A stretch of 64,000 nucleotides of DNA. Origin: Panaeolus papilionaceus. Taxonomy: Eukaryota; Basidiomycota; Agaricomycetes; Agaricales. The notes beneath the pieces are model-generated. The model was not told the origin of the DNA and did not search any database. It saw only the letters and a program-made list of their open reading frames with translations. The stretch spans positions 372,001-436,000 of the forward strand of contig JADNRZ010000024.1 of the NCBI GenBank assembly GCA_015501605.1, in the 5' to 3' direction. The translations under genes were made by a program, and so were the position numbers. Of this stretch, positions 7,182-64,000 are shown in pieces (positions within the stretch are counted from its first letter, which is position 1; each line of letters opens with the position of its first letter).

Positions 7182-7589
7182 TGTCAGGGGATCTCCTGCT
7201 ACCTCCTATTCCTTTCCTTATTCTTGTCTCTCTTGTCTCTCCTTTCCCCTATTTCCCTTTGCTCTATTTTATTATCTGGACATACCATGGACTCATATAT
7301 ATTATATTACACTCTCCTTTAGTTGTCACTCATTTGTTATTCACTTGTTTCCACTGTTACATAGTCATTCCTTTGTGTTTCCCTTTGTTTATTCCCAAAG
7401 GCATTGTTTGGCATCAAGGCTGATGCCAATGCCAGCTCATCACTTAAATAGCTGTTTCACCTGGGTTTGATCCTTTACCTCTTTCTCTTTGGATCTCCCC
7501 CAGGTGAGCCTACTTCCTGTATTTATGTAGAGCTGATATATATCTTTGGATCTCCCCCAGGACTTGTGTGTGTCTGAGGTGCCCTTACA
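7182..7589 (+). repeat. Chromo-1 5' LTR
   Basis: 408 bp, begins TGTCAGGGGATCTCC and ends GTGCCCTTACA. U3 is pyrimidine-rich. It contains the TATA-like box and the predicted transcription start described separately. Confidence 0.95.
7444..7486 (+). promoter_or_regulatory. Predicted LTR promoter and transcript 5' end
   Basis: TTAAATA at 7444-7450 lies 33 nt before 7477, where the 10-nt word ACCTCTTTCT (7477-7486) begins. That word is the exact complement of the PBS at 7592-7601, so 7477 is the expected transcript start if priming follows the Tf1 model. The start itself is inferred. Confidence 0.6.
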
Positions 7590-7591
7590 GT

Positions 7592-7601
7592 AGAAAGAGG
7601 T
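7592..7601 (+). other. Putative self-primer binding site of Chromo-1
   Basis: AGAAAGAGGT starts 2 nt after the LTR. It does not resemble the 3' end of a common primer tRNA but pairs perfectly over 10 nt with LTR positions 7477-7486. In Tf1 the first 11 nt of the mRNA fold back onto the PBS in the same way. Confidence 0.65.
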
Positions 7602-7719
7602 CACCTTGGAGACTGAGACTGCATACAGTCTGTTACATCCTCTGTTCTGCTTCTTCTGTTCAGCTGCATTATAGACTCTGTGCTTTCTCCCTCTCCTCTC
7701 TTCTCCCTGTCTGGCAACC

Positions 7720-10700
7720 ATGGATCTCCATACTTCACCACCTCCAGCTGCTTCTGTCTCTCTGTCTCAGTTGCCTTCCCTGGAAGACCAGGTATCCTCC
7801 ATGCTTGCTCAGCAGGAATCCCAACAGGTAGCTATCTCCCACTTGAGGTCTTCTGTTCTTTCCTTGCTTCATTATTTTTCTTCTACTTTCAATCCCTCTC
7901 CTCTTTCTCTTTCTTCTTCCCCTTCTTCTTCTCCCTCCCTTGTTTCTTCTACTTTTCCCCCACTCCCTTCCCACTCTGTTGGACAGCTGACAGATGGGAT
8001 ACTACACTCTTTAAACCATGGAACTGTAGACAGAAACTTTTCTCCCCCTTCTTCTTTTCCTTTACCTAGTGTAAACATGGAACAATCTTCTTCTTCTCCT
8101 CACCCTCTTCCTTCTTCTTCTCATTTTATTAGTGTACCTATGGAACACTCTTCTTCTTCTCTTTCTTCTAGTAGTAGTCTTCCTCCTCCCCCCACTTCTA
8201 TTCGGTCATCCAATAGAGTGGATCCTCCCCTCCCCACTGTCTCTTCTGGTTGCCCCAGTGGAATAGTGTCTTCCCCTCTCCTCACTGCCTCTTCTGGTTA
8301 TCCTAGTGGAGTAGTGCATTCCTCTGCCCCTTCTTCTCATCGTCTTGGGACTCCTTTGATGATTGCAGAAAAGGTTAGGCCAGCTCCTCCTCCCCGGTAC
8401 GATGGTGATCGTCTCAAGGGCAAAGCCTTCTACAACTCTCTCATGGGTTACTTCAGACTTCGTCCAGATCTTTTTCCGGACGAGTCCACCATGATTAGTT
8501 GGGCCCTCACGTTCATGTCTGCTGGTCGAGCTGCTCTATGGTCCTGCAGGATCTTTGAGCTCATTGAGGAAGGTTCCTCCCCTTACGCAACTTGGGATCA
8601 CTTTGCTGAAGACTTTCGCAAAGAGTTCTTCCCCTTGCGTGAGCAGGAAACTGCTGCCCTCATCTTGGAAGGTACCTCCTACTTCCAAGGGGATCGTTCT
8701 GTTGACGATTACGTTGACTCCTTCCGTGACCTTGTTGCTGAAGCTGGCTACTCTGACCCCTCCTACATCGTGGTCAAGTTCCGTCGTGGCCTCCACCCCT
8801 CCATCACTGATCATCTCAGTAAGCGGGTAGCTTCACATCCAGCTCATAACGATCCCTCTGGCTGGTACGAATTGGCCCGCCTTGTTGCTCTCAACTTGGC
8901 TGCTAATGACACCTTCCATCCGCAGCCTCCTCCTCCTGTGCCTAGCCCACTCTCTTCTCTTCCTCCTTCCTTCGCACATTTCCTTGACCCCTCCCCTGGT
9001 CCTTTGTCTATTCGCACCACTCATGCCCCCTTACGAAAGCCTGTGACAAGTGAAGTCTCTGTGCAAACGCCTGCACAAGCTCCACCTCTACCTTGTCCTA
9101 AAGTCGTTCCTGACTCTCGTAATCGGTATGCCCCTCTGGTTGATGAGACTCTATCTCTCCCAGATGAAGACAAGGTTCCCTCCTCTCCATCCTCCCTCCA
9201 TGATCCTTCTGCTCCGCCCCGCCTACCTCGTCGCTCCAAATGGGAATGTCGTCGCCTTCCATCCTCGTGCACCATCTCTTCTCTTGCACCTGGACCTAGC
9301 TCCCTTCACCTGAAGGTTGAGATAGAGACCACCGACTCCCATGAAGCTCGATCTGTTAAGGCCTTCCTTGACACTGGCGCTACTGGTCTGTTCATCGATC
9401 GAGAGTACGTCAAGTCCAACCGAATTGCCACCAGGAAGCTCAGCCACCCCATCCCTGTTCGTAACGTGGATGGAACGCTCAACGAGTCTGGTTCAATTAC
9501 TGAGGTGGTTGACTTGATCCTCCGGTACAACGGCCACACAGAACGCGCACTCTTCTGTGTCACGGGCTTAGGGAAGCAGAAGCTGATCATTGGATACACT
9601 TGGTTCAGGGATCACAATCCTGAAGTCAATTGGGAAACTGGAGAAGTCAAGATGTCTCGTTGCAAGCCTAGCAGTCGATGCTTTGGTTGCAAGAAGGAAC
9701 TCAATGAGGAAAAGAAGGCTGCTCGTAAGGAAGAAGCCAAGGTGAATGCCTGCCGCTCTGGTCCTGCCCCCTCTCTCACCCCTGAAGAGTCTTCCCCTGA
9801 AGATTCTGATGATCTCGAGTCCTCTGATCTGCCATTTGATCTTGAGGAAGGCGATCGTGTCTGGGTTTCTGGCTTACTCCCTGAGGAAGCTGAAGAGCAT
9901 ATCAACGCTACTTCAACCATCAGTCAACGCCTGGCTGAAGGTTTCTTGCGTAACTCTGCTCCTCAACCAGAACAGACCACTCCCCCTTCATCACCTCATG
10001 GTCCAGTCCCTGACTATCAGAGTCTCTTCCATCGCGTCTTCTCTGAAGCTGAGTTTCTTAAGCTTCCTGAGAGAAGGCCTTGGGATCATGCGATTGAGCT
10101 CATTCCTGGAGCTCAACCCAAGGGATGCAAGGTTTACCCATTAAACCCTGCAGAACGTGAAGAGGCTGAGCGCTTCCTTGCTGAGAACGAGGCTCAGGGA
10201 AAGATTCGCCGCTCCAAGTCCCCCATGGCATCACCAGTCTTCTTTGTGAAGAAAAAGGATGGCTCCCTTCGTCTGGTCCAGGACTATCGCATGCTCAATG
10301 ATATGACTGTGAAGAACAAGTACCCTCTCCCTCTCATCTCTGACCTTATCAACCAACTTCGTGGTGCACGCTACTTCACCAAGCTTGACATTCGTTGGGG
10401 TTTCAACAATGTCCGCATCAAAGAAGGAGATGAGTGGAAGGCTGCTTTTCGCACTCACAGAGGTCTCTTCGAACCTCTTGTCATGTTCTTTGGTCTCACC
10501 AACAGTCCTGCCACCTTCCAAACCATGATGAACGAGATCTTCCAAGACATGATCTCTGAAGGTGTGGTTGTGGTATATCTGGATGACATCCTGATCTTCA
10601 CCAAGGATATTCCTGAGCATTGAGAGGTCACTCATAGGGTCCTGAAGCGTCTAGAGGAACATGGTCTCTGCCTCCGTCTGGAGAAATGCGAGTTTGAGAA

Positions 10701-13023
10701 GACACGCATTGAGTACCTTGGGCTTATCGTTGCTGAGAACCGAGTCGAGATGGATCCTGTCAAAGTTGCTGGAGTTGCTCAATGGCCCACCCCCACCAAT
10801 AGGAAAGAAGTCCAATCTTTCCTGGGTTTTGCCAACTTCTATCGACGGTTCATCAAGGACTTCTCTCATCATGCACGTCCCCTCTTTGATCTTACCAAGA
10901 GCTCCACTGAGTTTTCCTGGTCTCCTGCTGCCGCTACTGCCTTCCAGTCCATCAAGGATGCTGTCACCTCCTCCCCTGTCCTTGCTGCTCCCAATGATGA
11001 TCTCCCTTTCCGGCTTGAAGCTGACTCTTCAGACTTTGCCACTGGTGCTGTACTCTCTCAACAGTCTCCAGAAGATGGAAAGTGGCATCCCATTGCTTTC
11101 TTCTCCAAGTCACTCTCTCCTGTCGAAAGGAACTATGAGATTCATGACAAGGAAATGCTTGCAATCATTCGAGCCTTGCAGGAATGGAGACACTTCCTTG
11201 AGGGTGCCCGCCACAAGTTTGAGATCTGGACTGACCACAAGAACTTGGAGTACTTCATGTCGTCTCAGAACCTCAACCGCAGGCAAGCCCGCTGGTCTCT
11301 CACTCTGGCGCGCTTTGACTTCGTCATGCAGCACAAGGCAGGAGCTACTATGGGAAAAGCAGATGCCCTCTCACGTCGGTCTGACCATGGTTCTAGTGAA
11401 CGTGACAACCAGAACATCACCCTCCTCACCCCCGGGATGTTTGCAGTTCGTGCACTAGAAGGTCTGGAATTTGTTGGACAGGAACGCTCTCTGGTTCGTG
11501 AGATCCGTCGACATTCCAAGGAGGCCTCTGATCTTGAGGACACTGTGGCCAAGGCAGTCAAGGCGCTCAGAAAGACTGGATCTCAGTCTCTTCGCTCCTC
11601 AGAGTGGGATGAAGCTGATGGTCTTATCTACTTCTGTGGAAAGCTCTATGTTCCACCAGGTGGTGATCTTCGTCGTCGCATTGTGGCTCTCTGCCATGAC
11701 TCCACTCTTGCTGGACACCCTGGACGTTGGAAGACCTTGGAGCTTGTGTCTAGGAACTATTGGTGGCCTCGCATGTCTAAGTTCATTGGACTCTACACCA
11801 GCACCTGTGACATGTGTCTTAGGACCAAGACCATCAGGCAGCGACCCCTTGGAGAACTTGAACCCCTTGCTGTTCCTGACCGCCGTTGGGACCATATCAG
11901 TGTGGACTTCATTGTCGAGCTTCCTGAGTCCAATGGTTATGATGCCATCATGGTTGTTGTTGACTCCCTTTCCAAACGCGCCCACTTCACTGCTACCACT
12001 ACCACTGTCTCTGCCCTAGGCACTGCCCGCATGTATCGTGACCATATCTGGAAACTCCATGGCCTTCCATCCAAGGTAGTCTCTGATTGCGGTCCACAGT
12101 TCATTGCAGAGTTCACCACCGAACTCTACAGGCTGCTTGGGATTGAGCCAGCTCGTAGCACTGCCTATCACCCTCAAACTGATGGACAGACTGAGCGTGT
12201 CAACCAGGAGTTGGAACAATACCTCAGGCTCTACATCTCTGAGCGACAGGATGACTGGTACGACATCCTTTCCATGGCTGAGTTTGCCTACAACAACCAT
12301 GTCCACTCCTCCACCCAGCAGACTCCCTTCCTTCTAGACTCTGGTCAACATCCTCGTATGGGCTTTGAACCTCTTCCTCCCTCCCGGATGGAAACTGTGA
12401 ATGAGTTCACTGATAGGATGAAGACCGCTCTTGAGGAAGCACGTGCTGCCTTAGCAGCTGCTAAGGAGGACATGGCTAGGTACTACAACCGACGTCGCAC
12501 CAAGGCTCCTGAGATCAAGCCTGGAGATCGTGTCTACCTTGATGCCTCAGACATCCAAACCACTCGGCCATCCAAGAAGCTCTCCCACAAGCGAGTTGGT
12601 CCTTACCCAGTCATTTCTAGTGTTGGAAAGAATGCCTACCGTCTTCAGCTTCCTAAATCCCTCTCCCGCATCCATCCAGTCTTCCATGTTGTCAGACTCA
12701 CTCCTGCTCCTTATGACCCCATCTCTGGTCGAAGAGCCAAGCTACCCCCACCTCCTGTGCTTGTTGACAATGTTGAAGAGTTCGTTGTGGAGAAGATTTT
12801 GAACAGCAAGTTCATCAGAGGCAAACTTCGATACCTGATCAAATGGGAAGGATACGATGCTGGTTGGAATTCTTGGGAACCAGCTGACGATGTCCATGCT
12901 CCTGACCTCATCAAGGACTTCTATGCAGAGAATCCTAAGGCTCCAAAGGTTATCAGGACCACTTATGCTCATATTCCTTACAAACAGGCTGGACTTCATG
13001 CTTCGAGGGCGAAGCAATCCTAG
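7720..13023 (+). pseudogene. Chromo-1 Gag-Pol polyprotein with one internal TGA
   Basis: One frame of 1767 residues. Residues 1-200 are Ser/Pro-rich; a retrotransposon Gag domain spans about 215-390, with no CCHC zinc knuckle after it. The aspartic protease has DTGA at 551-554. Reverse transcriptase shows FVKKKDGSLR and the catalytic YLDD at 953-956. RNase H follows, then integrase: zinc-binding HHCC from about 1326 and the D,D35E triad at D1396, D1456 and E1492. A chromodomain (about 1688-1740, KWEGYDAGWNSWEP) ends the protein and is known to steer chromovirus integration to marked chromatin. A TGA at codon 968 (10621-10623), 11 residues past YLDD, truncates it within RT; Chromo-2 has CGA there. 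The normal stop is at 13021-13023. D1456 is followed by Cys instead of the usual Arg. Confidence 0.95.
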
Positions 13024-13033
13024 AGGGGGGTAA
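13024..13033 (+). other. Chromo-1 polypurine tract
   Basis: AGAGGGGGG then TAA directly before the 3' LTR. It is the expected plus-strand primer. Chromo-2 has one additional G. Confidence 0.7.
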
Positions 13034-13441
13034 TGTCAGGGGATCTCCTGCTACCTCCTATTCCTTTCCTTATTCTTGTCTCTCTTGTCTCTCCTTTCCC
13101 CTATTTCCCTTTGCTCTATTTTATTATCTGGACATACCATGGACTCATATATATTATATTACACTCTCCTTTAGTTGTCACTCATTTGTTATTCACTTGT
13201 TTCCACTGTTACATAGTCATTCCTTTGTGTTTCCCTTTGTTTATTCCCAAAGGCATTGTTTGGCATCAAGGCTGATGCCAATGCCAGCTCATCACTTAAA
13301 TAGCTGTTTCACCTGGGTTTGATCCTTTACCTGTTTCTCTTTGGATCTCCCCCAGGTGAGCCTACTTCCTGTATTTATGTAGAGCTGATATATATCTTTG
13401 GATCTCCCCCAGGACTTGTGTGTGTCTGAGGTGCCCTTACA
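13034..13441 (+). repeat. Chromo-1 3' LTR
   Basis: 408 bp, near-identical to 7182-7589. One visible change is in the start word: ACCTGTTTCT instead of ACCTCTTTCT at about 13329-13338. A new copy made from a 3' LTR start would mis-pair at one base. Confidence 0.93.
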
Positions 13442-16400: not shown

Positions 16401-18360
16401 TAGCGAGTTTAGGAGGGAACTTAGCAGTTGAATCTCCCATATGTCGTAAAGCTTCTTTAGACGGATGTCCAAAGCGCTTATGCCAAAGATCATACTCTGT
16501 AATAGAGTTGGCAGTGTTTCTGACAATTGTTGAGGTTAACCAGTAAACGGTTTCACCTAAGACATGTGGTCGGCATTGGAATGCTAACTGCTTGCCTTTA
16601 TAGAAGGACATATTGCCAAGACGTCCTTCCATAGTCAATCCTTTAGAAAAGAATTGGCCCATTGACAGCAAACACTGATTGAGAGACTTGAAGTACAAGA
16701 CAGGAGAGAGGGAGATGTGCTTTTCAGCAACAGAACCATCTTCTGATTTGACTTTAACAATGAGATTAACTGTACCACGCGCAGTGACCATCTCAATTCC
16801 ACTGGCAGTTGAAACTGTTCCAAAGGTACCAGTTTCATACTCAGAAAAGTCCCTTAGATCACCAGTAAAGTGCTGTGAAGCACCTGAATCCATGATCCAA
16901 TCAACAGTTCCGTTTTCTCTGTGTTTGCCCTTACATCGTGCACAATTGAGAGAATGTTCATCAATATATTTCTGGGACCTAGCCACAGAACCTAACGAAT
17001 TACAAGCAAAATGATCAATATATTTACTTGTACAACTACCCCGCGCATCTAAAACAAAGTGCTGCGAACAATAGTTAGCATCGTTAGGGTGCATAGATGA
17101 AAAGGCTTGCCTTTCAAAAAGGGCCTTCTTGCCATTGTCAACATAAAATTCCTCTTCAGAGGAAAATCCATGGTTAACAATGTCCTCATTGTCAGAGTAA
17201 AACTCGACAAGACCTGGCATGGACGAGGTTTCATCCTCATCATCAGAAGGAGGGTGAGGGAAGAAGTCCTCAGTCTCCATGTCGATGGATAGCTTGGGCT
17301 CCCTGTGGTTGGCAACAAGGTCAAGGTTCTTCATGGTTTGGATTGTCTTAGTGACTTCAAGACGATCCGCAAGAGACCTTGCATTGTTGACCTCAACATA
17401 GGCAGAGGGGCCAGCTTCCATGCGCATGGGTCCAGTGCCATGAACACGGTTAAAAACCATAGAGGAAGGGTCGGCAAGACGCTCAAGGAGCGTAGGAGAA
17501 GGTTTGGATGAGGAGGTGGTGTGTTGGGCAGGTTCATAGGCAGCAGAGAGAACAAAATGGGTGTGGTTGTGACCAGAGTGGCCACCATGACCACCACTGC
17601 GATTGAACTTGCGACCTCCTCAACCTCCACGACCTCGGTTTCCAGAGAACTTGGAAGGGTCCTGGGCAGGGCCTTTACCCTTGAAGGGGGGGTCCTGCTT
17701 CTTGTGACGAACAGCAGAGATCTTGTTGGCCATTCCAGGAGTAGAGAGCTGCTTGCGCTCGAACTCAGCAACGATCTTGTCTTGGATTTCTTTCCAATCC
17801 AAGTCTTCAGCTTTGGTGACAGTGAGTTCAGTGGCAGCAATATGCTCCCAGCGGTTGGGAATGGAACCAAGGACAATCATGGCCTTGTAAAAGTCATCAA
17901 GAGGATGACCATTGGTGGACAGTTTGTCGAAAAGCTGTCCAAGTTCGTGGAGTTGGGGGGCAGGATTACTCAGTCCAGAAAGACGGAAACTAAAAATGCG
18001 ACGGACATCAGCGAACATAGTGGAAGCACCAATCTTGCCACAAGCAGCTTCAAGATCGGTCCAGAGACTGGCAGCAGTGGTACCAGGAGTGGTGACCTTG
18101 CCAGTGGAGTCCTTGATAGGCTCCTTGATGAGGTGGAGCAAGGCAGGAGTAAGACGAAGGGCAATGGAACCAAGTGCCTTATCGTCCTTTTCCAACCAGT
18201 CAGCAAGCTCAGTGGGCTTGTCATCGGCAGGCTTCTTGAGGTTGCCATTGACAACTTGCCACAGTGCCTGCGACCTGAGCCAGTTCTTCATAGAAAGGCT
18301 CCATTCAAGCCAGTTGGCACCATCGAGTTTGGGAACGAGTTGAGTGATTTGGGAAGACAT
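13447..18360 (-). pseudogene. Copia-2 Gag-Pol, N-terminal to RT part
   Basis: The minus-strand frame starts at the ATG at 18360. Order: Copia Gag (18360 to about 17620, LDGANWLEWSLSMKNWL near the start), an Arg/Gly-rich stretch, protease with DSGAS (about 16880), GAG-pre-integrase and HHCC region (about 16500-16350), integrase core with HSD, HSDGGGEF and NGRAEWFNRT (about 16300-15985), a Pro-rich linker, and reverse transcriptase with YVDDGLF near 13800. Two TGA codons (17620-17622 and 14299-14301) interrupt it. In both, CGA would give the expected Arg and the preceding base is T. Otherwise the frame is open up to the Chromo-1 insertion and resumes at 7181. Confidence 0.92.
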
Positions 18361-19560: not shown

Positions 19561-19965
19561 TGTCAGGGGATCTCCTGCTACCTCCTATTCCTTTCCTTAT
19601 TATCATCTCTCTGTCTCTCCTTTCTCCATTTCCTTTGCTCTATCTCATTATCTGGACATATCATGGACTCATAGATATTATATTACACTCTCCTTTAGTT
19701 GCCATTCATTCATTATTTAGTTGTTGCCACTGTTACATAGTCATTCCTTTGTGTTTCCCTTTGTTTGTTTCCAAAGGCATTGTTTGGCATCAAGGCTGAT
19801 GCCAATGCCAGCTCATCACTTAAATAGCTGTTTCACCTGGGTTTGATCCTTTACCTCTTTCTCTTTGGATCTCCCCCAGGTGAGCCTACTTCCTGTATTT
19901 ATGTAGAGCTGATATATATCTTTGGATCTCCCCCAGGACTTGTGTGTGTCTGAGGTGCCCTTACA
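19561..19965 (+). repeat. Chromo-2 5' LTR with divergent U3
   Basis: 405 bp. Differences from the other LTRs cluster in about 19600-19780 (U3); the R-U5 part is the same. TTAAATA (19820-19826), the start word at 19853 and the PBS at 19968-19977 keep the spacing seen in Chromo-1. Confidence 0.93.
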
Positions 19966-20095
19966 GTAGAAAGAGGTCACCTTGGAGACTGAGACTGCAT
20001 ACAGTCTGTTACATCCTCTGTTCTGCTTCTTCTGTTCAGCTGCATTATAGACTCTGTGCTTTCTCCCTCTCCTCTCTTCTCCCTGTCTGGCAACC

Positions 20096-23000
20096 ATGGA
20101 TCCCCATACTTCACCACCTCCAGCTGCTTCTGTCTCTCTGTCTCAGTTGCCTTCCCTGGAAGACCAGGTATCCTCCATGCTTGCTCAGCAGGAATCCCAA
20201 CAGGTAGCTATCTCCCACTTGAGGTCTTCTGTTCTTTCCTTGCTTCATTATTTTTCTTCTACTTTCAATCCCTCTCCTCTTTCTCTTTCTTCTTCCCCTT
20301 CTTCTTCTCCCTCCCTTGTTTCTTCTACTTTTCCCCCACTCCCTTCCCACTCTGTTGGACAGCTGACAGATGGGATACTACACTCTTTAAACCATGGAAC
20401 TGTAGACAGAAACTTTTCTCCCCCTTCTTCTTTTCCTTTACCTAGTGTAAACATGGAACAATCTTCTTCTTCTCCTCACCCTCTTCCTTCTTCTTCTCAT
20501 TTTATTAGTGTACCTATGGAACATTCTTCTTCTTCTCTTTCTTCTAGTAGTAGTCTTCCTCTTCCCCCCACTTCTATTCGGTCATCCAATAGAGTGGATC
20601 CTCCCCTCCCCACTGTCTCTTCTGGTTGCCCCAGTGGAATAGTGTCTTCCCCTCTCCTCACTGCCTCTTCTGGTTATCCTAGTGGAGTAGTGCATTCCTC
20701 TGCCCCTTCTTCTCATCGTCTTGGGACTCCTTTGATGATTGCAGAAAAGGTTAGGCCAGCTCCTCCTCCCCGGTACGATGGTGATCGTCTCAAGGGCAAA
20801 GCCTTCTACAACTCTCTCATGGGTTACTTCAGACTTCGTCCAGATCTTTTTCCGGACGAGTCCACCATGATTAGTTGGGCCCTCACGTTCATGTCTGCTG
20901 GTCGAGCTGCTCTATGGTCCTGCAGGATCTTTGAGCTCATTGAGGAAGGTTCCTCCCCTTACGCAACTTGGGATCACTTTGCTGAAGACTTTCGCAAAGA
21001 GTTCTTCCCCTTGCGTGAGCAGGAAACTGCTGCCCTCATCTTGGAAGGTACCTCCTACTTCCAAGGGGATCGTTCTGTTGACGATTACGTTGACTCCTTC
21101 CGTGACCTTGTTGCTGAAGCTGGCTACTCTGACCCCTCCTACATCGTGGTCAAGTTCCGTCGTGGCCTCCACCCCTCCATCACTGATCATCTCAGTAAGC
21201 GGGTAGCTTCACATCCAGCTCATAACGATCCCTCTGGCTGGTACGAATTGGCCCGCCTTGTTGCTCTCAACTTGGCTGCTAATGACACCTTCCATCCGCA
21301 GCCTCCTCCTCCTGTGCCTAGCCCACTCTCTTCTCTTCCTCCTTCCTTCGCACATTTCCTTGACCCCTCCCCTGGTCCTTTGTCTATTCGCACCACTCAT
21401 GCCCCCTTACGAAAGCCTGTGACAAGTGAAGTCTCTGTGCAAACGCCTGCACAAGCTCCACCTCTACCTTGTCCTAAAGTCGTTCCTGACTCTCGTAATC
21501 GGTATGCCCCTCTGGTTGATGAGACTCTATCTCTCCCAGATGAAGACAAGGTTCCCTCCTCTCCATCCTCCCTCCATGATCCTTCTGCTCCGCCCCGCCT
21601 ACCTCGTCGCTCCAAATGGGAATGTCGTCGCCTTCCATCCTCGTGCACCATCTCTTCTCTTGCACCTGGACCTAGCTCCCTTCACCTGAAGGTTGAGATA
21701 GAGACCACGACTCCCATGAAGCTCGATCTGTTAAGGCCTTCTTGACACTGGCGCTACTGGTCTGTTCATCGATCGAGAGTACGTCAAGTCCAACCGAATT
21801 GCCACCAGGAAGCTCAGCCCCCCATCCCTGTTCGTAACGTGGATGGAACGCTCAACGAGTCTGGTTCAATTACTGAGGTGGTTGACTTGATCCTCCGGTA
21901 CAACGGCCACACAGAACGCGCACTCTTCTGTGTCACGGCTTAGGGAAGCAGAAGCTGATCATTGGATACACTTGGTTCAGGGATCACAATCCTGAAGTCA
22001 ATTGGGAAACTGGAGAAGTCAAGATGTCTCGTTGCAAGCCTAGCAGTCGATGCTTTGGTTGCAAGAAGGAACTCAATGAGGAAAAGAAGGCTGCTCGTAA
22101 GGAAGAAGCCAAGGTGAATGCCTGCCGCTCTGGTCCTGCCCCCTCTCTCACCCCTGAAGAGTCTTCCCCTGAAGATTCTGATGATCTCGAGTCCTCTGAT
22201 CTGCCATTTGATCTTGAGGAAGGCGATCGTGTCTGGGTTTCTGGCTTACTCCCTGAGGAAGCTGAAGAGCATATCAACGCTACTTCAACCATCAGTCAAC
22301 GCCTGGCTGAAGGTTTCTTGCGTAACTCTGCTCCTCAACCAGAACAGACCACTCCCCCTTCATCACCTCATGGTCCAGTCCCTGACTATCAGAGTCTCTT
22401 CCATCGCGTCTTCTCTGAAGCTGAGTTTCTTAAGCTTCCTGAGAGAAGGCCTTGGGATCATGCGATTGAGCTCATTCCTGGAGCTCAACCCAAGGGATGC
22501 AAGGTTTACCCATTAAACCCTGCAGAACGTGAAGAGGCTGAGCGCTTCCTTGCTGAGAACGAGGCTCAGGGAAAGATTCGCCGCTCCAAGTCCCCCATGG
22601 CATCACCAGTCTTCTTTGTGAAGAAAAAGGATGGCTCCCTTCGTCTGGTCCAGGACTATCGCATGCTCAATGATATGACTGTGAAGAACAAGTACCCTCT
22701 CCCTCTCATCTCTGACCTTATCAACCAACTTCGTGGTGCACGCTACTTCACCAAGCTTGACATTCGTTGGGGTTTCAACAATGTCCGCATCAAAGAAGGA
22801 GATGAGTGGAAGGCTGCTTTTCGCACTCACAGAGGTCTCTTCGAACCTCTTGTCATGTTCTTTGGTCTCACCAACAGTCCTGCCACCTTCCAAACCATGA
22901 TGAACGAGATCTTCCAAGACATGATCTCTGAAGGTGTGGTTGTGGTATATCTGGATGACATCCTGATCTTCACCAAGGATATTCCTGAGCATCGAGAGGT

Positions 23001-25393
23001 CACTCATAGGGTCCTGAAGCGTCTAGAGGAACATGGTCTCTGCCTCCGTCTGGAGAAATGCGAGTTTGAGAAGACACGCATTGAGTACCTTGGGCTTATC
23101 GTTGCTGAGAACCGAGTCGAGATGGATCCTGTCAAAGTTGCTGGAGTTGCTCAATGGCCCACCCCCACCAATAGGAAAGAAGTCCAATCTTTCCTGGGTT
23201 TTGCCAACTTCTATCGACGGTTCATCAAGGACTTCTCTCATCATGCACGTCCCCTCTTTGATCTTACCAAGAGCTCCACTGAGTTTTCCTGGTCTCCTGC
23301 TGCCGCTACTGCCTTCCAGTCCATCAAGGATGCTGTCACCTCCTCCCCTGTCCTTGCTGCTCCCAATGATGATCTCCCTTTCCGGCTTGAAGCTGACTCT
23401 TCAGACTTTGCCACTGGTGCTGTACTCTCTCAACAGTCTCCAGAAGATGGAAAGTGGCATCCCATTGCTTTCTTCTCCAAGTCACTCTCTCCTGTCGAAA
23501 GGAACTATGAGATTCATGACAAGGAAATGCTTGCAATCATTCGAGCCTTGCAGGAATGGAGACACTTCCTTGAGGGTGCCCGCCACAAGTTTGAGATCTG
23601 GACTGACCACAAGAACTTGGATACTTCATGTCGTCTCAGAACCTCAACCGCAGGCAAGCCCGCTGGTCTCTCACTCTGGCGCGCTTTGACTTCGTCATGC
23701 AGCACAAGGCAGGAGCTACTATGGGAAAAGCAGATGCCCTCTCACGTCGGTCTGACCATGGTTCTAGTGAACGTGACAACCAGAACATCACCCTCCTCAC
23801 CCCGGGATGTTTGCAGTTCGTGCACTAGAAGGTCTGGAATTTGTTGGACAGGAACGCTCTCTGGTTCGTGAGATCCGTCGACATTCCAAGGAGGCCTCTG
23901 ATCTTGAGGACACTGTGGCCAAGGCAGTCAAGGCGCTCAGAAAGACTGGATCTCAGTCTCTTCGCTCCTCAGAGTGGGATGAAGCTGATGGTCTTATCTA
24001 CTTCTGTGGAAAGCTCTATGTTCCACCAGGTGGTGATCTTCGTCGTCGCATTGTGGCTCTCTGCCATGACTCCACTCTTGCTGGACACCCTGGACGTTGG
24101 AAGACCTTGGAGCTTGTGTCTAGGAACTATTGGTGGCCTCGCATGTCTAAGTTCATTGGACTCTACACCAGCACCTGTGACATGTGTCTTAGGACCAAGA
24201 CCATCAGGCAGCGACCCCTTGGAGAACTTGAGCCCCTTGCTGTTCCTGACCGCCGTTGGGACCATATCAGTGTGGACTTCATTGTCGAGCTTCCTGAGTC
24301 CAATGGTTATGATGCCATCATGGTTGTTGTTGACTCCCTTTCCAAACGCGCCCACTTCACTGCTACCACTACCACTGTCTCTGCCCTAGGCACTGCCCGC
24401 ATGTATCGTGACCATATCTGGAAACTCCATGGCCTTCCATCCAAGGTAGTCTCTGATCGTGGTCCACAGTTCATTGCAGAGTTCACTACTGAACTCTACA
24501 GGCTGCTTGGGATTGAGCCAGCTCGTAGCACTGCCTATCACCCTCAAACTGATGGACAGACTGAGCGTGTCAACCAGGAGTTGGAACAATACCTCAGGCT
24601 CTACATCTCTGAGCGACAGGATGACTGGTACGACATCCTTTCCATGGCTGAGTTTGCCTACAACAACCATGTCCACTCCTCCACCCAGCAGACTCCCTTC
24701 CTTCTAGACTCTGGTCAACATCCTCGTATGGGCTTTGAACCTCTTCCTCCCTCCCGGATGGAAACTGTGAATGAGTTCACTGATAGGATGAAGACCGCTC
24801 TTGAGGAAGCACGTGCTGCCTTAGCAGCTGCTAAGGAGGACATGGCTAGGTACTACAACCGGCGTCGCACCAAGGCTCCTGAGATCAAGCCTGGAGATCG
24901 TGTCTACCTTGATGCCTCAGACATCCAAACCACTCGGCCATCCAAGAAGCTCTCCCACAAGCGAGTTGGTCCTTACCCAGTCATTTCTAGTGTTGGAAAG
25001 AATGCCTACCGTCTTCAGCTTCCTAAATCCCTCTCCCGCATCCATCCAGTCTTCCATGTTGTCAGACTCACTCCTGCTCCTTATGACCCCATCTCTGGTC
25101 GAAGAGCCAAGCTACCCCCACCTCCTGTGCTTGTTGACAATGTTGAAGAGTTCGTTGTGGAGAAGATTTTGAACAGCAAGTTCATCAGAGGCAAACTTCG
25201 ATACCTGATCAAATGGGAAGGATACGATGCTGGTTGGAATTCTTGGGAACCAGCTGACGATGTCCATGCTCCTGACCTCATCAAGGACTTCTATGCAGAG
25301 AATCCTAAGGCTCCAAAGGTTATCAGGACCACTTATGCTCACATTCCTTACAAACAGGCTGGACTTCATGCTTCGAGGGCGAAGCAATCCTAG
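20096..25393 (+). pseudogene. Chromo-2 Gag-Pol with six 1-bp deletions
   Basis: Same protein as Chromo-1 from ATG 20096 to the stop at 25391-25393. Compared with Chromo-1 it lacks single bases near 21708, 21740, 21819, 21937, 23620 and 23803. The first four hit the protease region and the last two the RNase H to integrase region. Elsewhere there are only about ten substitutions over 5.3 kb. The codon that is TGA in Chromo-1 is CGA here, and the integrase second Asp is followed by Arg, as expected for the family. Whether the deletions are real or base-calling errors cannot be told from the sequence. Confidence 0.92.
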
Positions 25394-25404
25394 AGGGGGG
25401 GTAA

Positions 25405-25812
25405 TGTCAGGGGATCTCCTGCTACCTCCTATCCCTTTCCTTATTCTTGTCTCTCTTGTCTCTCCCTTCCCCTATTTCCCTTTGCTCTATTTTATTATCT
25501 GGACACACCATGGACTCATATATATTATATTACACTCTCCTTTAGTTGTCACTCATTTGTTATTCACTTGTTTCCACTGTTACATAGTCATTCCTTTGTG
25601 TTTCCCTTTGTTTATTCCCAAAGGCATTGTTTGGCATCAAGGCTGATGCCAATGCCAGCTCATCACTTAAATAGCTGTTTCACCTGGGTTTGATCCTTTA
25701 CCTCTTTCTCTTTGGATCTCCCCCAGGTGAGCCTACTTCCTGTATTTATGTAGAGCTGATATATATCTTTGGATCTCCCCCAGGACTTGTGTGTGTCTGA
25801 GGTGCCCTTACA
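25405..25812 (+). repeat. Chromo-2 3' LTR
   Basis: 408 bp, near-identical to the Chromo-1 LTRs, preceded by a G-rich polypurine tract. It ends ...CCCTTACA and runs straight into Chromo-3 RT sequence. Confidence 0.94.
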
Positions 25813-28583: not shown

Positions 28584-28699
28584 TCAGCCAGGTAAGCTAT
28601 GGTATAAGAACTGAGTTGAGCTGGTGGAATCCATGGATATCTAATGGATTAAATACAAGACATTAGTAGGTATTGTATAGGATTAATAGCAGTAAGTAA

Positions 28700-29060
28700 G
28701 GGAATTAGTATGGGTAGGTAAGAGGGTGGGTGCAGGGGGGGTTGGGGTAGGGTGTAGGGGGCGGGTGCAGGGGATAGGGTAGGGGGATGGGGTGGGGGGA
28801 TGGGGTGGGGGGATAGGGGGACAGAGTAGGGGGATGGGTAGGGGGTGGGTGCAGGAGTGGGTGCAGGAGTGGGTGCAGAAGCAGGTGCAGGGGACGGGGT
28901 GGGGTAGGGTGATGGGGTAGGGGGCAGGTGCAGGAATTAGTATGGGTAGGTAAGGGGGCAGGTGCAGGAGTGGGTGCAGGAGTGGGTGCAGGAGTGGGTG
29001 CAAGAGTGGGTGTAGGAGCAGCTGCAGGAGTGGCTGCAGGAGCGGGTGCAGGGGGTTGGG
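28700..29060. repeat. GTGGGTGCAGGA minisatellite in left arm
   Basis: Degenerate tandem units such as AGTGGGTGCAGG and GGGGGATGGGGT. The inverted partner is at about 31885-32245. Long Pro/His-rich open frames here are products of the repeat and not genes. The G-rich strand has many G-runs and could form quadruplexes. Confidence 0.8.
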
Positions 29061-29344
29061 GTCAGTAGGTCAGGGGTGAAAAGTGAGCAGATAGTACAGA
29101 CTGGATGGTATCCAGGGATGAAATGCGGGTGCATGCAGAGGGGATACAGAGCAGGTGCAGGTTGGATGTAAACTGGGTGCAGGCTGGATACTAAAGTGGG
29201 TTGGGTGCAGATGCAGCCGATAAAGCAACCAATTGGGGAGGCAGGCACAATGTTCAGGTACCTGGGTAGTGGGTCCTAAAATCAATGGCATGCAGGGGGG
29301 TGCATATTGGGTGGTCAGGTATGGGTGCACAGAAAACCACTTAC

Positions 29345-29505
29345 CTCGCTTGCAATTCAGGTGAATATCCCTGTTCTGTTACAGCTCTCCTTGCTCTTTC
29401 GGCCTCAGCCTTCTGCTCTGGTGTGTACTTGGCCAGAATTTCATGCACAGTGCAATGTCTGTATTCCATTGAAAGCTTGGACATTAAGGCCACATCTGGC
29501 CCCAG
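29345..29505 (-). pseudogene. Possible captured exon in the palindrome
   Basis: On the minus strand an open stretch of about 50 codons (YRHCTVHEILAKYTPEQ, then EAERARRAVTEQGYSPELQ) ends exactly at a strong GTAAGT splice donor (29344-29339). Its last 23 codons and the donor are duplicated in the right arm on the plus strand (about 29755-29832). I do not recognise the parent gene. It could equally be part of the element's own former gene. Confidence 0.4.
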
Positions 29506-29912
29506 CTCTCAGGCTACAATTGCCTGGCTTTTTCCAGCACTTCCTTGAATTGGTAGTTGTAGCAGTAGTCGGAGGTAGTCAATCAGAGGGTTGGGGGTTT
29601 GTACGGTTGTATCTTGGACCTCCAGTTGGCACTTGCATTGGCTGCAATTCTCTGATGAACATAATGTCTCAGCCCAATAAACACCATCATGTGGGATTGG
29701 ATCATATACATCAGTCCATATATCGATGTTGGTATTGTTGGTTCAGTGTTTTGGCAGAAGGCTGAGGCCGAAAGAGCAAGGAGAGCTGTAACAGAACAGG
29801 GATATTCGCCTGAATTGCAAGCGAGGTAAGTGGTTTTCTGTGCACCCATACCTGACCACCCAATATGCACCCCCCTGCATGCCATTGATTTTAGGACCCA
29901 CTACCCAGGTAC

Positions 29913-30214
29913 TGTAAGGGATAGGAATGCCCAGAAGCCAAGTTGATAATCGAGTGAGGAATCATCCTGATCCCCACTGGCCTATATACTACATCGGATA
30001 AACTATCTACCGGTATGCTGTGCACTAAATCTAAGAATAGGCTAAGGCTATGCGATATCAAATGATGGTGACGAAACAATCAGGAAAGGAGGCTGCGCAC
30101 TACGACAGGGGTATCAATGATGCAACGGGCGGCTGTACAGTGATCTAGAGATGATGACCAGGCTGTGCACCGTAACCGCGCTAGGGTGGGGGTTCTGTGA
30201 CAGATCCCCTGACA
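29913..30214 (-). repeat. KH element 3' LTR
   Basis: 302 bp. On the minus strand it starts TGTCAGGGGATCTG and ends CCCTTACA. A purine-rich tract (complement of about 30215-30227) precedes it. Confidence 0.93.
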
Positions 30215-30252
30215 CTATCTCCCCATCTAGATTTGCTGCCCCAGCAAATCCC

Positions 30253-31275
30253 TTAGCTTCCACGTCTACCGCCTCGTCCACTGCGCTCCCGGAAAACCAC
30301 ACCGCGACCACCCCTTGAAGGAGCAGTGGGGGGGATAGGGTTCCCAAGAGTGGGCGCAAGTGCTGAGAAGTGGGCTCTCATCGCATCAATGCTCATCGGC
30401 GAGCCAGGCGAGAGTGCCGGGGTAGGGTTGGCGGTCTGCATCACGGCTGTAGGCGCGATGGGAGTGTTGGGCTGGTTCACAGGTGTCGTCGAAGCTGATC
30501 GAGCACCTGGGGTAGCCACTGGTGAAGGTGGGGCGGCCGTGTTCATGACGATGGAGGGGACGACCGGAGTAGAGCCTGGAGCAGGGGTAGGAGTTGCCGA
30601 CGGTGCTGCAGGGGTTAGAGCGGCGGACTGAGGAATTGATGGTGGCGAGGGGGGCTGAGTGGCCGGAGCAGCCTGAACAATGGGAACAGGGGCTTCACGG
30701 AACTTCCCAGCGGTTGGCCTCCCACTGGCATCACGAGCAGGACCCGGAGCATCCCGCTGCCTAGGGGCGCGGACTCGGCGACGAGCGAGCCGCTTGCCCA
30801 ATACGACGAGGGCATTACCAACTTGAGAGTCGGTACCGCGAATAGAGACGTGGCGGGCACCAGCTGATCCGTCCTTTACCTCAAAGGCTCGGATGTGCGC
30901 ACCAGATAAGTCATGGATCTGTTTAAGACCCCTTCCACCTCGCCCAACCAGGTGCGCTGCCATCGCGTCGGGTACAATGACAGTGAGCAACTGCTGATCG
31001 GGTTTGTCGTCCTTCTGAGGGTAGGTGCCCGACATATGAAGGTGGGTGGGAATAGTGCCTTGTGGGGGAGTAGGAGCCGGTGGGGCGGGAGGCTCAGCCT
31101 TCTTCCGCTGACGGCGAGAGGGTTGGGTAGGTGCGATAGCTGCAATAGTCTGTTGGGTAGAGAGCTGGTTGGTGACGGAGCGAAGCTCCTCCTGGAGCAG
31201 CCTCATCCGCTCATAGAGTTGGTCGAACTGTTCAGTGACGAATTCTTCCAAGGACATCTCTGGTGTAGTAGACAT
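30253..31275 (-). CDS. KH-domain / RGG-tail protein of the LTR element
   Basis: 340 residues starting at the ATG at 31275, about 100 nt inside the 5' LTR. Residues 1-45 look like a coiled coil (FDQLYERMRLLQEELRS). After a Lys/Pro-rich linker, residues about 95-170 form a KH domain: a hydrophobic strand, the loop GRGGRG (GXXG), LKQIHDLSGAHI, and a C-terminal helix. An Arg-rich patch (GKRLARRRVRAPRQR) follows, then about 120 residues rich in Pro, Ala, Ser and Thr, and a C-terminal RGG/RG tail (SRGGRGVVF, GRGGRRGS). KH and RGG modules bind single-stranded RNA or DNA, so the protein is probably an RNA-binding, Gag- or nucleocapsid-like factor for the element; that role is inferred. The frame is intact and the second copy looks the same over its first bases, consistent with selection on the ORF. 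Confidence 0.85.
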   Translation of the reverse strand: MSTTPEMSLEEFVTEQFDQLYERMRLLQEELRSVTNQLSTQQTIAAIAPTQPSRRQRKKAEPPAPPAPTPPQGTIPTHLHMSGTYPQKDDKPDQQLLTVIVPDAMAAHLVGRGGRGLKQIHDLSGAHIRAFEVKDGSAGARHVSIRGTDSQVGNALVVLGKRLARRRVRAPRQRDAPGPARDASGRPTAGKFREAPVPIVQAAPATQPPSPPSIPQSAALTPAAPSATPTPAPGSTPVVPSIVMNTAAPPSPVATPGARSASTTPVNQPNTPIAPTAVMQTANPTPALSPGSPMSIDAMRAHFSALAPTLGNPIPPTAPSRGGRGVVFRERSGRGGRRGS

Positions 31276-31364
31276 TGGGAGCAGGGTGTGGGCGAAGGGT
31301 AGGGCTTGTAGGATGAGGAGTAGATGGTGTGCAGTGAGCTAGAGAGGTGCAGACTGCTGTAGAG

Positions 31365-31374
31365 ACTCGATTAT
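31365..31374 (-). other. Putative self-primer binding site of KH element
   Basis: On the minus strand ATAATCGAGT starts 2 nt after the 5' LTR. It is the exact complement of the LTR word ACTCGATTAT (minus strand, 31419-31410). Length and spacing are the same as in Chromo-1, but the sequences differ. Confidence 0.7.
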
Positions 31375-31376
31375 GA

Positions 31377-31678
31377 TGTAAGGGATAGGAATGCCCAGAA
31401 GCCAAGTTGATAATCGAGTGAGGAATCATCCTGATCCCCACTGGCCTATATACTACATCGGATAAACTATCTACCGGTATGCTGTGCACTAAATCTAAGA
31501 ATAGGCTAAGGCTATGTGATATCAAATGATGGTGACGAAACAATCAGGAAAGGAGGCTGCGCACTACGACAGGGGTATCAATGATGCAACGGGCGGCTGT
31601 ACAGTGATCTAGAGATGATGACCAGGCTGTGCACCGTAACCGCGCTAGGGTGGGGGTTCTGTGACAGATCCCCTGACA
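31377..31678 (-). repeat. KH element 5' LTR
   Basis: 302 bp; differs from the 3' LTR by one C/T transition. Contains TATATAG and the self-priming word. Confidence 0.93.
31410..31452 (-). promoter_or_regulatory. Predicted KH element LTR promoter
   Basis: TATATAG (minus strand, 31452-31446) lies exactly 33 nt before 31419, where ACTCGATTAT begins. The spacing equals that in Chromo-1 and Chromo-2, so 31419 is the likely transcript start. Confidence 0.6.
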
Positions 31679-32392
31679 GGTACCTGAACATTGTGCCTGC
31701 CTCCCCAATTGGTTGCTTTATCGGCTGCATCTGCACCCAACCCACTTTAGTATCCAGCCTGCACCCAGTTTACATCCAACCTGCACCTGCTCTGTATCCC
31801 CTCTGCATGCACCCGCATTTCATCCCTGGATACCATCCAGTCTGTACTATCTGCTCACTTTTCACCCCTGACCTACTGACCCCAACCCCCTGCACCCGCT
31901 CCTGCAGCCACTCCTGCAGCTGCTCCTACACCCACTCTTGCACCCACTCCTGCACCCACTCCTGCACCCACTCCTGCACCTGCCCCCTTACCTACCCATA
32001 CTAATTCCTGCACCTGCCCCCTACCCCATCACCCTACCCCACCCCGTCCCCTGCACCTGCTTCTGCACCCACTCCTGCACCCACTCCTGCACCCACCCCC
32101 TACCCATCCCCCTACTCTGTCCCCCTATCCCCCCACCCCATCCCCCCACCCCATCCCCCTACCCTATCCCCTGCACCCGCCCCCTACACCCTACCCCAAC
32201 CCCCCCTGCACCCACCCTCTTACCTACCCATACTAATTCCCTTACTTACTGCTATTAATCCTATACAATACCTACTAATGTCTTGTATTTAATCCATTAG
32301 ATATCCATGGATTCCACCAGCTCAACTCAGTTCTTACACTGTACGTGTTCTATATGTCAACTCAGTTCTTATACCATAGCTTACCTGGCTGA

Positions 32393-63624: not shown

Positions 63625-64000
63625 TGTAAGGGATAGGAATGCCCAGAAGCCAAGTTGATAATCGAGTGAGGAATCATCCTGATCCCCACTGGCCTATATA
63701 CTACATCGGATAAACTATCTACCGGTATGCTGTGCACTAAATCTAAGAATAGGCTAAGGCTATGCGATATCAAATGATGGTGACGAAACAATCAGGAAAG
63801 GAGGCTGCGCACTACGACAGGGGTATCAATGATGCAACGGGCGGCTGTACAGTGATCTAGAGATGATGACCAGGCTGTGCACCGTAACCGCGCTAGGGTG
63901 GGGGTTCTGTGACAGATCCCCTGACACTATCTCCCCATCTAGATTTGCTGCCCCAGCAAATCCCTTAGCTTCCACGTCTACCGCCTCGTCCACTGCGCTC
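63625..64000 (-). mobile_element. Second KH LTR element, cut by the window edge
   Basis: A 302-bp LTR (63625-63926) is followed by 74 bp of internal sequence that equals 30215-30288. In minus-strand sense this is the 3' LTR. The left flank at 63620-63624 is CATCC, which should recur after the other LTR outside the window. The insertion lies just upstream of the JmjC ATG and has the same orientation as that gene. Confidence 0.93.
63658..63700 (-). promoter_or_regulatory. LTR promoter facing the JmjC gene
   Basis: TATATAG (63700-63694, minus strand) and the predicted start at 63667 have the same 33-nt spacing as in the other copy. A transcript from 63667 would have a leader of about 45 nt with no earlier ATG before the JmjC start at 63622. 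Use of this promoter is inferred. Confidence 0.45.

What the first reader, a model, noticed from the sequence alone, without database searches (positions are those of the whole stretch)
29913..31678. KH-protein LTR element looks like a trans-mobilised partner of the chromovirus
Seen directly: the LTRs of the KH element and of Chromo-1/2 share the same ends (TGTCAGGGGATCT at the start, CCCTTACA at the end), although the LTR bodies are unrelated. The KH element has perfect LTRs, a 5-bp TSD and two copies in this window, but no pol. Integrase recognises LTR ends, so shared ends are what a parasite of the chromovirus integrase should show. This is a candidate two-component system: an autonomous chromovirus and a non-autonomous element that brings its own RNA-binding protein.
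Basis: partly seen in the sequence, partly recalled or inferred. Interest (0 to 1): 0.88.

Follow-up and report, generated by a model that had tools for sequence, protein, structure and literature searches.

The report
Satellite retrotransposon with its own RNA-binder
A small fungal jumping gene that makes only one RNA-binding protein carries the same end signals and a start-up signal of the same layout as a large self-sufficient retrotransposon in the same genome, so it probably moves by borrowing that element's machinery while bringing a protein of its own.

Summary
29913-31678 (- strand) is a 1,766-bp LTR element: 302-bp LTRs, TSD GGTAC, one 340-aa KH-domain ORF, no pol. I found 22 full-length copies, all with open ORFs and perfect 5-bp TSDs, 21 with LTR pairs differing by 0-2 bases, plus 18 solo LTRs read. 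The ends TGTCAGGGGATCT..CCCTTACA are identical to those of the chromovirus CH1 (Chromo-1/2); the LTR bodies are unrelated. Other chromovirus families whose ends I could read differ. No pol-bearing element with a KH-like LTR was found, but the search was not exhaustive: three 13-mer sites of a likely KH subtype were not read.
New evidence: (i) KH, CH1 and two other chromoviruses have a Tf1-type self-priming site 2 nt after the LTR; (ii) the polypurine tract is of CH1/C5 type; (iii) KH copies lie near CH1 LTRs 12-17 times more often than random; (iv) an empty site survives in an inverted-repeat arm; (v) the KH protein has relatives elsewhere, GxxG loop kept in 15 of 15 aligned.
Best reading: a satellite LTR retrotransposon mobilised in trans by CH1. 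Mobilisation, the protein's role and co-occurrence elsewhere are inferred or untested.

The parts
29908..29912 (.). target-site duplication GGTAC, left copy
29913..30214 (-). 3' LTR of the KH element (302 bp; TGTCAGGGGATCT..CCCTTACA)
30215..30240 (-). polypurine-tract region GGCAGCAAATCTAGATGGGGAGATAG, identical in 22 of 22 full copies
30253..31275 (-). KH-protein ORF, 340 aa: helix 9-44 (modelled), KH domain about 98-156 with GRGG loop, Pro/Ser/Thr-rich tail, Arg/Gly-rich end
31365..31374 (-). putative self-priming site ATAATCGAGT, 2 nt after the 5' LTR
31410..31419 (-). complement ACTCGATTAT in the 5' LTR: predicted transcript start and primer (inferred)
31377..31678 (-). 5' LTR of the KH element (302 bp)
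31679..31683 (.). target-site duplication GGTAC, right copy
63625..64000 (-). second KH element, cut by the window end (complete in the genome)
   Evidence: (L029)
7182..13441 (+). CH1 chromovirus copy (Chromo-1), LTRs 7182-7589 and 13034-13441, TSD GACAG; gag-pol lies in two open frames in this copy (7720-10623 and 10750-13023)
7592..7601 (+). CH1 self-priming site AGAAAGAGGT, 2 nt after its 5' LTR; complement ACCTCTTTCT at 7477-7486
13008..13033 (+). CH1 polypurine-tract region GGCGAAGCAATCCTAGAGGGGGGTAA
19561..25812 (+). second CH1-type copy (Chromo-2), same ends, no TSD, frames broken

Best explanation
The KH element is a non-autonomous (satellite) LTR retrotransposon. Its RNA is made from its own LTR, primes its own reverse transcription Tf1-style (the predicted RNA 5' end folds back on a 10-nt site 2 nt past the LTR) and makes one KH-domain RNA-binding protein. 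Gag particle, reverse transcriptase/RNase H and chromodomain integrase are supplied in trans by the co-resident CH1 chromovirus, whose integrase accepts the cDNA because both LTR ends are the CH1 ends. Inferred: trans use of CH1 proteins, self-priming, and that the KH protein binds the element's RNA (perhaps to bring it into CH1 particles).
For: Ends: 13/13 and 8/8 identical to CH1, then immediate divergence. Other autonomous families that could be read differ: A TGTCAGGATCACT/CCCTAACA, C5 TGTCAGGGGACAA/CTCTGACA, another group starting TGTTACG. Of the 208 13-mer sites, 64 have a base other than C next: 44 LTRs of the 22 full KH copies, 17 solo KH LTRs, 3 variant or incomplete CH1 LTRs; none belongs to a pol element with KH LTRs. 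Of the other 144, 136 match a CH1 22-mer exactly. A KH-LTR body pattern adds 3 unpaired sites (not read) and 3 weak ones. Self-priming: KH and CH1 have a 10-nt complement exactly 2 nt after the terminal CA; for KH 1 of 500 shuffles reached it, for CH1 3 of 500. PPT KH-CH1 score 9.5, 1 of 2000 shuffles. TSDs of 5 bp: 22/22 full KH copies, 15/17 solo KH LTRs, 6/6 CH1 copies checked plus Chromo-1. Co-location: 7 of 19 KH copies within 5 kb of a CH1 LTR, random 2.1%. Recent: 22/22 ORFs without stops; 16 LTR-pair differences over 22 copies. CH1 has long frames left: 10 of 150 listed Ty3 RNase H hits lie in open frames of 1,780-1,787 aa, 8 of them between two listed CH1 LTR sites, 1 beside one, 1 on a contig beyond the list. 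Of 38 KH-domain hits in this genome 22 are these elements and 16 lie in 5 other loci; no KH hit sits in a frame longer than 363 aa.
Against: No direct evidence of trans-mobilisation, RNA binding or transcription. TGTCAGG is common to three chromovirus families here, so only about 6 extra bases at the start and a few at the end are CH1-specific. A KH LTR subtype (one solo LTR read, 89% identical, TSD GTGTG) ends CCCTAACA, like family A and unlike CH1. The self-priming layout is shared by A and C5, and the PPT region is also similar between CH1 and C5 (0 of 2000 shuffles) and weakly KH-C5 (27 of 2000), so these two features point to a chromovirus, not to CH1 alone. KH copies are also enriched near non-CH1 Ty3 hits (3 of 19 within 10 kb, random 3.2%; 1 of 19, random 2.7%, with a stricter list). 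The RNA fold is only modestly better than shuffles (15 of 200 as good). Many Ty3 families' ends were not read, and the assembly may be incomplete.
Confidence: 0.72

Rival explanations
1. The helper is another self-priming chromovirus of the TGTCAGG type (C5 or A type, or one not sampled) rather than CH1; the ends are only loosely specific.
For: C5 shares the first 10 of 13 bases, the PPT type and the self-priming layout; A shares the first 7 bases and the end CCCTAACA, which one KH LTR subtype also has.
Against: Among families read only CH1 matches the main KH type at both ends over all 21 bases; the sites of the 13-mer that were read are KH or CH1 LTRs; KH co-location is strongest with CH1.
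Confidence: 0.15
2. KH is the deleted derivative of an autonomous element with its own KH-like LTR that is lost, unassembled or missed here; end sharing with CH1 is common descent.
For: The ends could be inherited; older KH LTRs exist (86% and 89% identical solos); three sites of the likely 89% subtype and three unpaired KH sites were not read.
Against: No pol element with a KH-type LTR among the 64 sites read, and none of the unread sites has a same-strand partner within 10 kb in the same lists; the KH ORF fills the interior (101-nt leader, 38-nt tail); 22 near-identical copies need a currently active source of pol; the KH protein has relatives elsewhere.
Confidence: 0.1
3. The KH ORF is a passenger (captured host RNA-binding gene) with no role in transposition. 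This can be true together with the best explanation.
For: KH proteins are ordinary cell proteins; best solved relatives are Nova-1 and hnRNP K.
Against: All 22 copies open; synonymous excess among copies, 30 of 52 against 18.8 expected, p 0.001; KH loop kept in 15 of 15 aligned relatives at 29-60% identity, short tail motifs in most of them.
Confidence: 0.15
4. Chance: two unrelated LTR families converged on the same ends.
For: Ends are short and partly generic (TG..CA, TGTCAGG).
Against: 13 + 8 exact bases together with priming layout, PPT, TSD length and co-location.
Confidence: 0.02

Closest known systems
TR-GAG elements (plants; PMC8704663, passages seen; original description recalled)
   Same: LTR element with one ORF, no pol, presumed helped in trans
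   Different: Their ORF is a Gag, in that paper's case of a related autonomous family; here the protein is a KH protein without a Gag match and the LTR bodies are unrelated to the helper
TRIM / SMART / Helenus-Ajax / Cassandra (PMC10886601, passages seen)
   Same: Non-autonomous, thought to be mobilised in trans; that paper suggests that LTR homology is not necessary for trans-mobilisation
   Different: TRIMs are under 1,000 bp and encode no protein responsible for mobilisation; here a 340-aa protein fills the interior
Tf1/Tj1-type self-primed retrotransposons (PMC4600332, passages seen)
   Same: Self-complementary site after the 5' LTR
   Different: KH has no gag-pol; it is only a template of that kind
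LARD elements, e.g. in Laccaria bicolor (PMC3411680, passages seen; definition recalled)
   Same: Non-autonomous LTR elements in an agaric
   Different: LARDs are long and non-coding (recalled); KH is 1.8 kb and coding
Bdelloid LTR elements with captured ORF3 (PMC5408684, abstract seen)
   Same: Capture of a foreign ORF by an LTR element
   Different: Those have gag and pol besides

Membership tests
LTR retrotransposon (any) | direct LTRs with TG..CA ends, polypurine tract, priming site, TSD | tested here: met
Chromovirus (Ty3, chromodomain integrase) | encodes RT, RNase H and integrase with chromodomain | tested here: not met
   KH ORF has KH_1 only; CH1 has RT, RNase H, integrase and Chromo matches
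Non-autonomous LTR element mobilised in trans | no pol but recent copies with TSDs | tested here: met
Non-autonomous LTR element mobilised in trans | an autonomous partner's proteins act on it | not testable with these tools
   only indirect: shared ends, priming layout, PPT, co-location
TR-GAG | single ORF is a Gag protein | tested here: not met
   no Gag match at E up to 1 in Pfam; only KH_1. A Gag too diverged for Pfam is not excluded
TRIM | under 1,000 bp, no mobilisation protein (PMC10886601) | tested here: not met
   1,766 bp with a 340-aa ORF (342 aa in one copy) open in 22 of 22 copies
LARD | long non-coding interior (recalled) | tested here: not met
   interior is nearly all ORF
Self-primed (Tf1-type) element | site after the 5' LTR complementary to the RNA 5' end | tested here: inconclusive
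   complement present at 2-nt offset, 1 of 500 shuffles; RNA start not known; fold z only -1.6
KH domain protein (Pfam KH_1) | profile match above the curated cut-off and GxxG loop | tested here: met
   36.6 bits against a cut-off of 21.5; GxxG in 16 of 16 aligned, query included; modelled strand/helix order fits a type I KH fold (fold order recalled) but confidence is modest (mean pLDDT 54.9)

The most novel reading that the evidence does not exclude
KH elements are an old, Agaricomycete-wide lineage of satellite retroelements whose KH protein is a dedicated RNA-selection factor: it binds the satellite RNA and brings it into the particles of whichever chromovirus is active, while LTR ends, polypurine tract and self-primer are tuned to that helper (the CCCTAACA subtype would be the trace of an earlier, A-like helper). 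It would be the first LTR satellite known to me with its own non-Gag RNA-binding protein.
Probability: 0.35. Interest if true: 0.82.

Novelty: new variant of a known kind. Interest (0 to 1): 0.63.

Why it matters
To my knowledge it is poorly understood how LTR elements without pol get into the particles of their helpers. Here a satellite keeps the parts that helper enzymes must recognise (both ends, self-primer, polypurine tract) and otherwise only an RNA-binding protein. That separates enzyme recognition from RNA selection and gives a natural pair in which both can be tested. The KH protein also has relatives in many public sequences whose shown names, where there are any, are 'hypothetical protein' or 'KH domain'.

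Tried and rejected
Autonomous source of the KH LTR: sought with the 13-mer, the 13-mer plus a non-C base, the KH LTR itself (40 of 71 first-look candidates scored) and an 18-base pattern from the LTR body; none found. Because of this I lowered the best explanation from 0.75 to 0.72 and raised the lost-relative rival from 0.08 to 0.10. No further copy of the subtype lies in the DNA held.

The same-strand pair of KH LTR hits about 5.85 kb apart on C34 is a solo LTR and a full KH copy that lies between two CH1 LTRs, not an autonomous element (partly from coordinates). LTR body homology to CH1, C5 or A: none above shuffles. KH joined to pol: not seen. Relatives in viral contigs: none in three scans. 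CH1 Gag search to compare species: one hit, 99% identical over 61% of the query, source without organism name, so no help on co-occurrence. Literature: no paper on a KH protein in an LTR element in the listings (0 papers; 6 of 6; 15 of 291; 9 of 9; 8 of 61); seen as listings apart from the papers named.

Limits of counts: one search scored 34 candidates; searches list 150 of 193 and 150 of 192; one search lists 100 of 147 sites, so the neighbour tests use contigs C1-C36 of known length (19 of 22 full KH copies, 12 of 17 solo LTRs). In one search the non-CH1 list was picked by hand; one search used a scripted rule; both are reported. Neighbour p-values treat insertions as independent. Only 15 of the relatives found were aligned. 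Whether the KH domain came from a gene of this host was not tested. Locus L091 was fetched and not used. For family A no clean TSD was found.

Full report
OBSERVATION. The window is part of a 50.85-Mb assembly with 71 contigs. The KH element lies at 29913-31678 on the - strand: LTRs 31377-31678 and 29913-30214 (302 bp, one difference), TSD GGTAC on both sides, a 101-nt leader, a 340-aa ORF (30253-31275) and 38 nt before the 3' LTR. The insertion sits in one arm of a large inverted repeat; the other arm (28602-29416) is an uninterrupted version of the site with GGTAC once, so the empty site is seen directly. Chromo-1 (CH1, 7182-13441) has 408-bp LTRs, TSD GACAG, and Gag, RT, RNase H, integrase and chromodomain matches. 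Its LTR ends equal those of KH over the first 13 and last 8 bases, and the next bases differ. The inner LTRs show no likeness above shuffles.

COPIES. 22 full-length KH copies were found, all with the ORF free of stops; 22 of 22 have perfect 5-bp TSDs; LTR pairs differ by 0-2 bases in 21 copies and by 6 in one. 17 solo KH LTRs carry the exact start plus G, 16 of them 96.7-99.7% and one 86% identical to the window's KH LTR; 15 of 17 have a 5-bp TSD. One further solo LTR of a subtype (89% identical, TSD GTGTG) lies in L023. An 18-base LTR-body pattern gives 67 sites, that is 3 further unpaired KH-like sites (not read) and 3 weak matches. The KH_1 domain gives 38 hits: 22 in these elements and 16 in five other loci.

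WHO SHARES THE ENDS. The 13-mer occurs 208 times, reversed control 0. 64 of the 208 have a base other than C next: 44 LTRs of full KH copies, 17 solo KH LTRs and 3 variant or incomplete CH1 LTRs. Of the remaining 144, 136 are exact CH1 22-mers, 4 read TGTCAGGGGATCTCT (one read, a KH subtype with the end CCCTAACA), none departs at base 16, and 4 by subtraction depart later and were not read. So the sites that were read, or matched the 22-mer, are KH or CH1 LTRs. To see whether this is trivial I read the 3' ends of 20 Ty3 elements downstream of the integrase and the 5' ends of two. Three of the 20 are CH1-type. Family A (two elements): TGTCAGGATCACT..CCCTAACA; a relative of A starts TATCAGGACAC; C5 (one element): TGTCAGGGGACAA..CTCTGACA, TSD ATGAT; a group with a further ORF behind pol starts TGTTACG in the three elements where the start was reached; in the other 10 the LTR start was not determined. 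TGTCAGG is thus a chromovirus habit here, and the rest of the match is particular to CH1 and the main KH type among the families read. The end CCCTAACA is shared by family A and the KH subtype, which speaks against a strict one-helper history.

START-UP SIGNALS. In KH the ten bases ATAATCGAGT, two bases after the 5' LTR, are the exact complement of LTR bases 260-269; CH1 has AGAAAGAGGT, two bases after its LTR, complementary to LTR bases 296-305. C5 (10 nt) and A (11 nt) have the same layout with the same 2-nt offset once their LTRs are ended at CA, two bases short of the repeat that the script took. Equal or longer complements arose in 1 of 500 (KH), 3 of 500 (CH1), 2 of 500 (C5) and 0 of 500 (A) shuffles of the 25 downstream bases. 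Self-priming is described for Tf1 and proposed for Tj1 (PMC4600332, passages seen). The primer sequences of KH and CH1 are unrelated, so KH would prime on its own RNA but by the helper's mechanism. 22 of 22 full KH copies keep the LTR part in both LTRs; 21 of 22 keep the site, one has a change in it. The fold of the predicted RNA start pairs as expected but is only modestly better than shuffles (z -1.6, 15 of 200 as good). The 26 bases before the 3' LTR, identical in 22 of 22 KH copies, align to those of CH1 with 9.5 (1 of 2000 shuffles), to C5 with 3.5 (27 of 2000), to A with -2 (770 of 2000); CH1-C5 gives 10 (0 of 2000). So the tract is of CH1/C5 type.

PLACES. On contigs C1-C36 of known length, 7 of 19 full KH copies lie within 5 kb of a CH1 LTR (random 2.1%, ratio 17) and 8 of 19 within 10 kb (random 3.5%, ratio 12). 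For solo KH LTRs it is 2 of 12 and 3 of 12. KH copies also lie near non-CH1 Ty3 hits more than random (2 of 19 within 5 kb, random 1.6%; 3 of 19 within 10 kb, random 3.2%); CH1 insertions do so too (9 of 53 within 10 kb). With a stricter non-CH1 list the KH figure is 0 of 19 within 5 kb and 1 of 19 within 10 kb (random 1.4% and 2.7%). One full KH copy lies between two CH1 LTRs spaced as one CH1 element plus one KH element on C34 (from coordinates), and one solo KH LTR lies inside CH1 interior sequence (L048). This fits a shared target region; it does not prove a shared integrase.

THE PROTEIN. Pfam finds only KH_1; solved relatives are Nova-1, hnRNP K, FUSE-binding protein and PCBP1. 31 of 51 lie on contigs whose longest is 1.1-1.9 kb, about the size of one element; short contigs are common in public assemblies, so this is weak. 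In the 16 aligned proteins (query included) the GxxG loop is kept in 16, and 18 of 25 invariant positions lie in residues 98-156. The model shows a confident N-terminal helix (9-44), a KH-like order of strands and helices at modest confidence, and an ill-defined tail (mean pLDDT 54.9). Among 21 copies of equal length, 52 ORF variants are 30 synonymous and 22 not, against 18.8 and 31.7 expected (1.6 nonsense) under a CpG-aware model (p 0.001). Private variants show the same excess (19 of 33, p 0.006), which simple neutrality after insertion does not predict; shared variants are 11 of 19 (p 0.07). I take selection on the protein as likely, not proven.

READING. KH carries what a CH1-type RT and integrase must see (both ends, polypurine tract, self-primer) and lacks all enzymes; its copies are young, and CH1 still has long frames (10 of 150 listed RNase H hits in frames of 1,780-1,787 aa; five other hits lie in longer frames of 2,203-2,680 aa that were not examined). 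The simplest account is trans-mobilisation by CH1. The role of the KH protein (RNA selection, stability or packaging) is inference. Non-autonomous LTR elements are known, and LTR homology with the helper has been suggested not to be necessary (PMC10886601, passages seen). What I did not find, in the searches, is an LTR element whose only protein is a KH protein.

Noticed in passing
L023, - strand, genome C19:547452-547466 and on: Solo LTR of a KH subtype, 301 bp, 89% identical to the KH LTR, start TGTCAGGGGATCTCTTG, end CCCTAACA as in chromovirus family A, TSD GTGTG.
   Followed up: partly
L056+L077 (C51), L061+L075 (C14), L058+L074 (C2): Chromodomain Ty3 families with a further long ORF between pol and the 3' LTR (LTR start TGTTACG); in the C51 copy it ends in cysteine-rich, knuckle-like motifs. 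It looks like a gag-type ORF placed downstream of pol.
   Followed up: partly
KH copies L010-L031: 44 of 52 ORF variants and 19 of 27 LTR variants among 21 copies are CpG transitions, a sign of CpG methylation.
   Followed up: partly
28602-29416 and 29754-32339: Large, nearly perfect inverted repeat with KH inserted in one arm; perhaps the long inverted ends of another element.
   Followed up: no
19561-25812: Chromo-2 lacks a TSD and its two LTRs differ strongly: probably a recombinant of two CH1-type copies.
   Followed up: no
about 13447-18360: Ty1/copia-like element (label recalled from its domain set) on the - strand, adjoining Chromo-1.
   Followed up: no
P0003, C-terminus: One KH relative ends in a cysteine/histidine-rich stretch (CRYCGTYDGRHMADC) that I did not see, by eye, in the other 15 aligned.
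   Followed up: no
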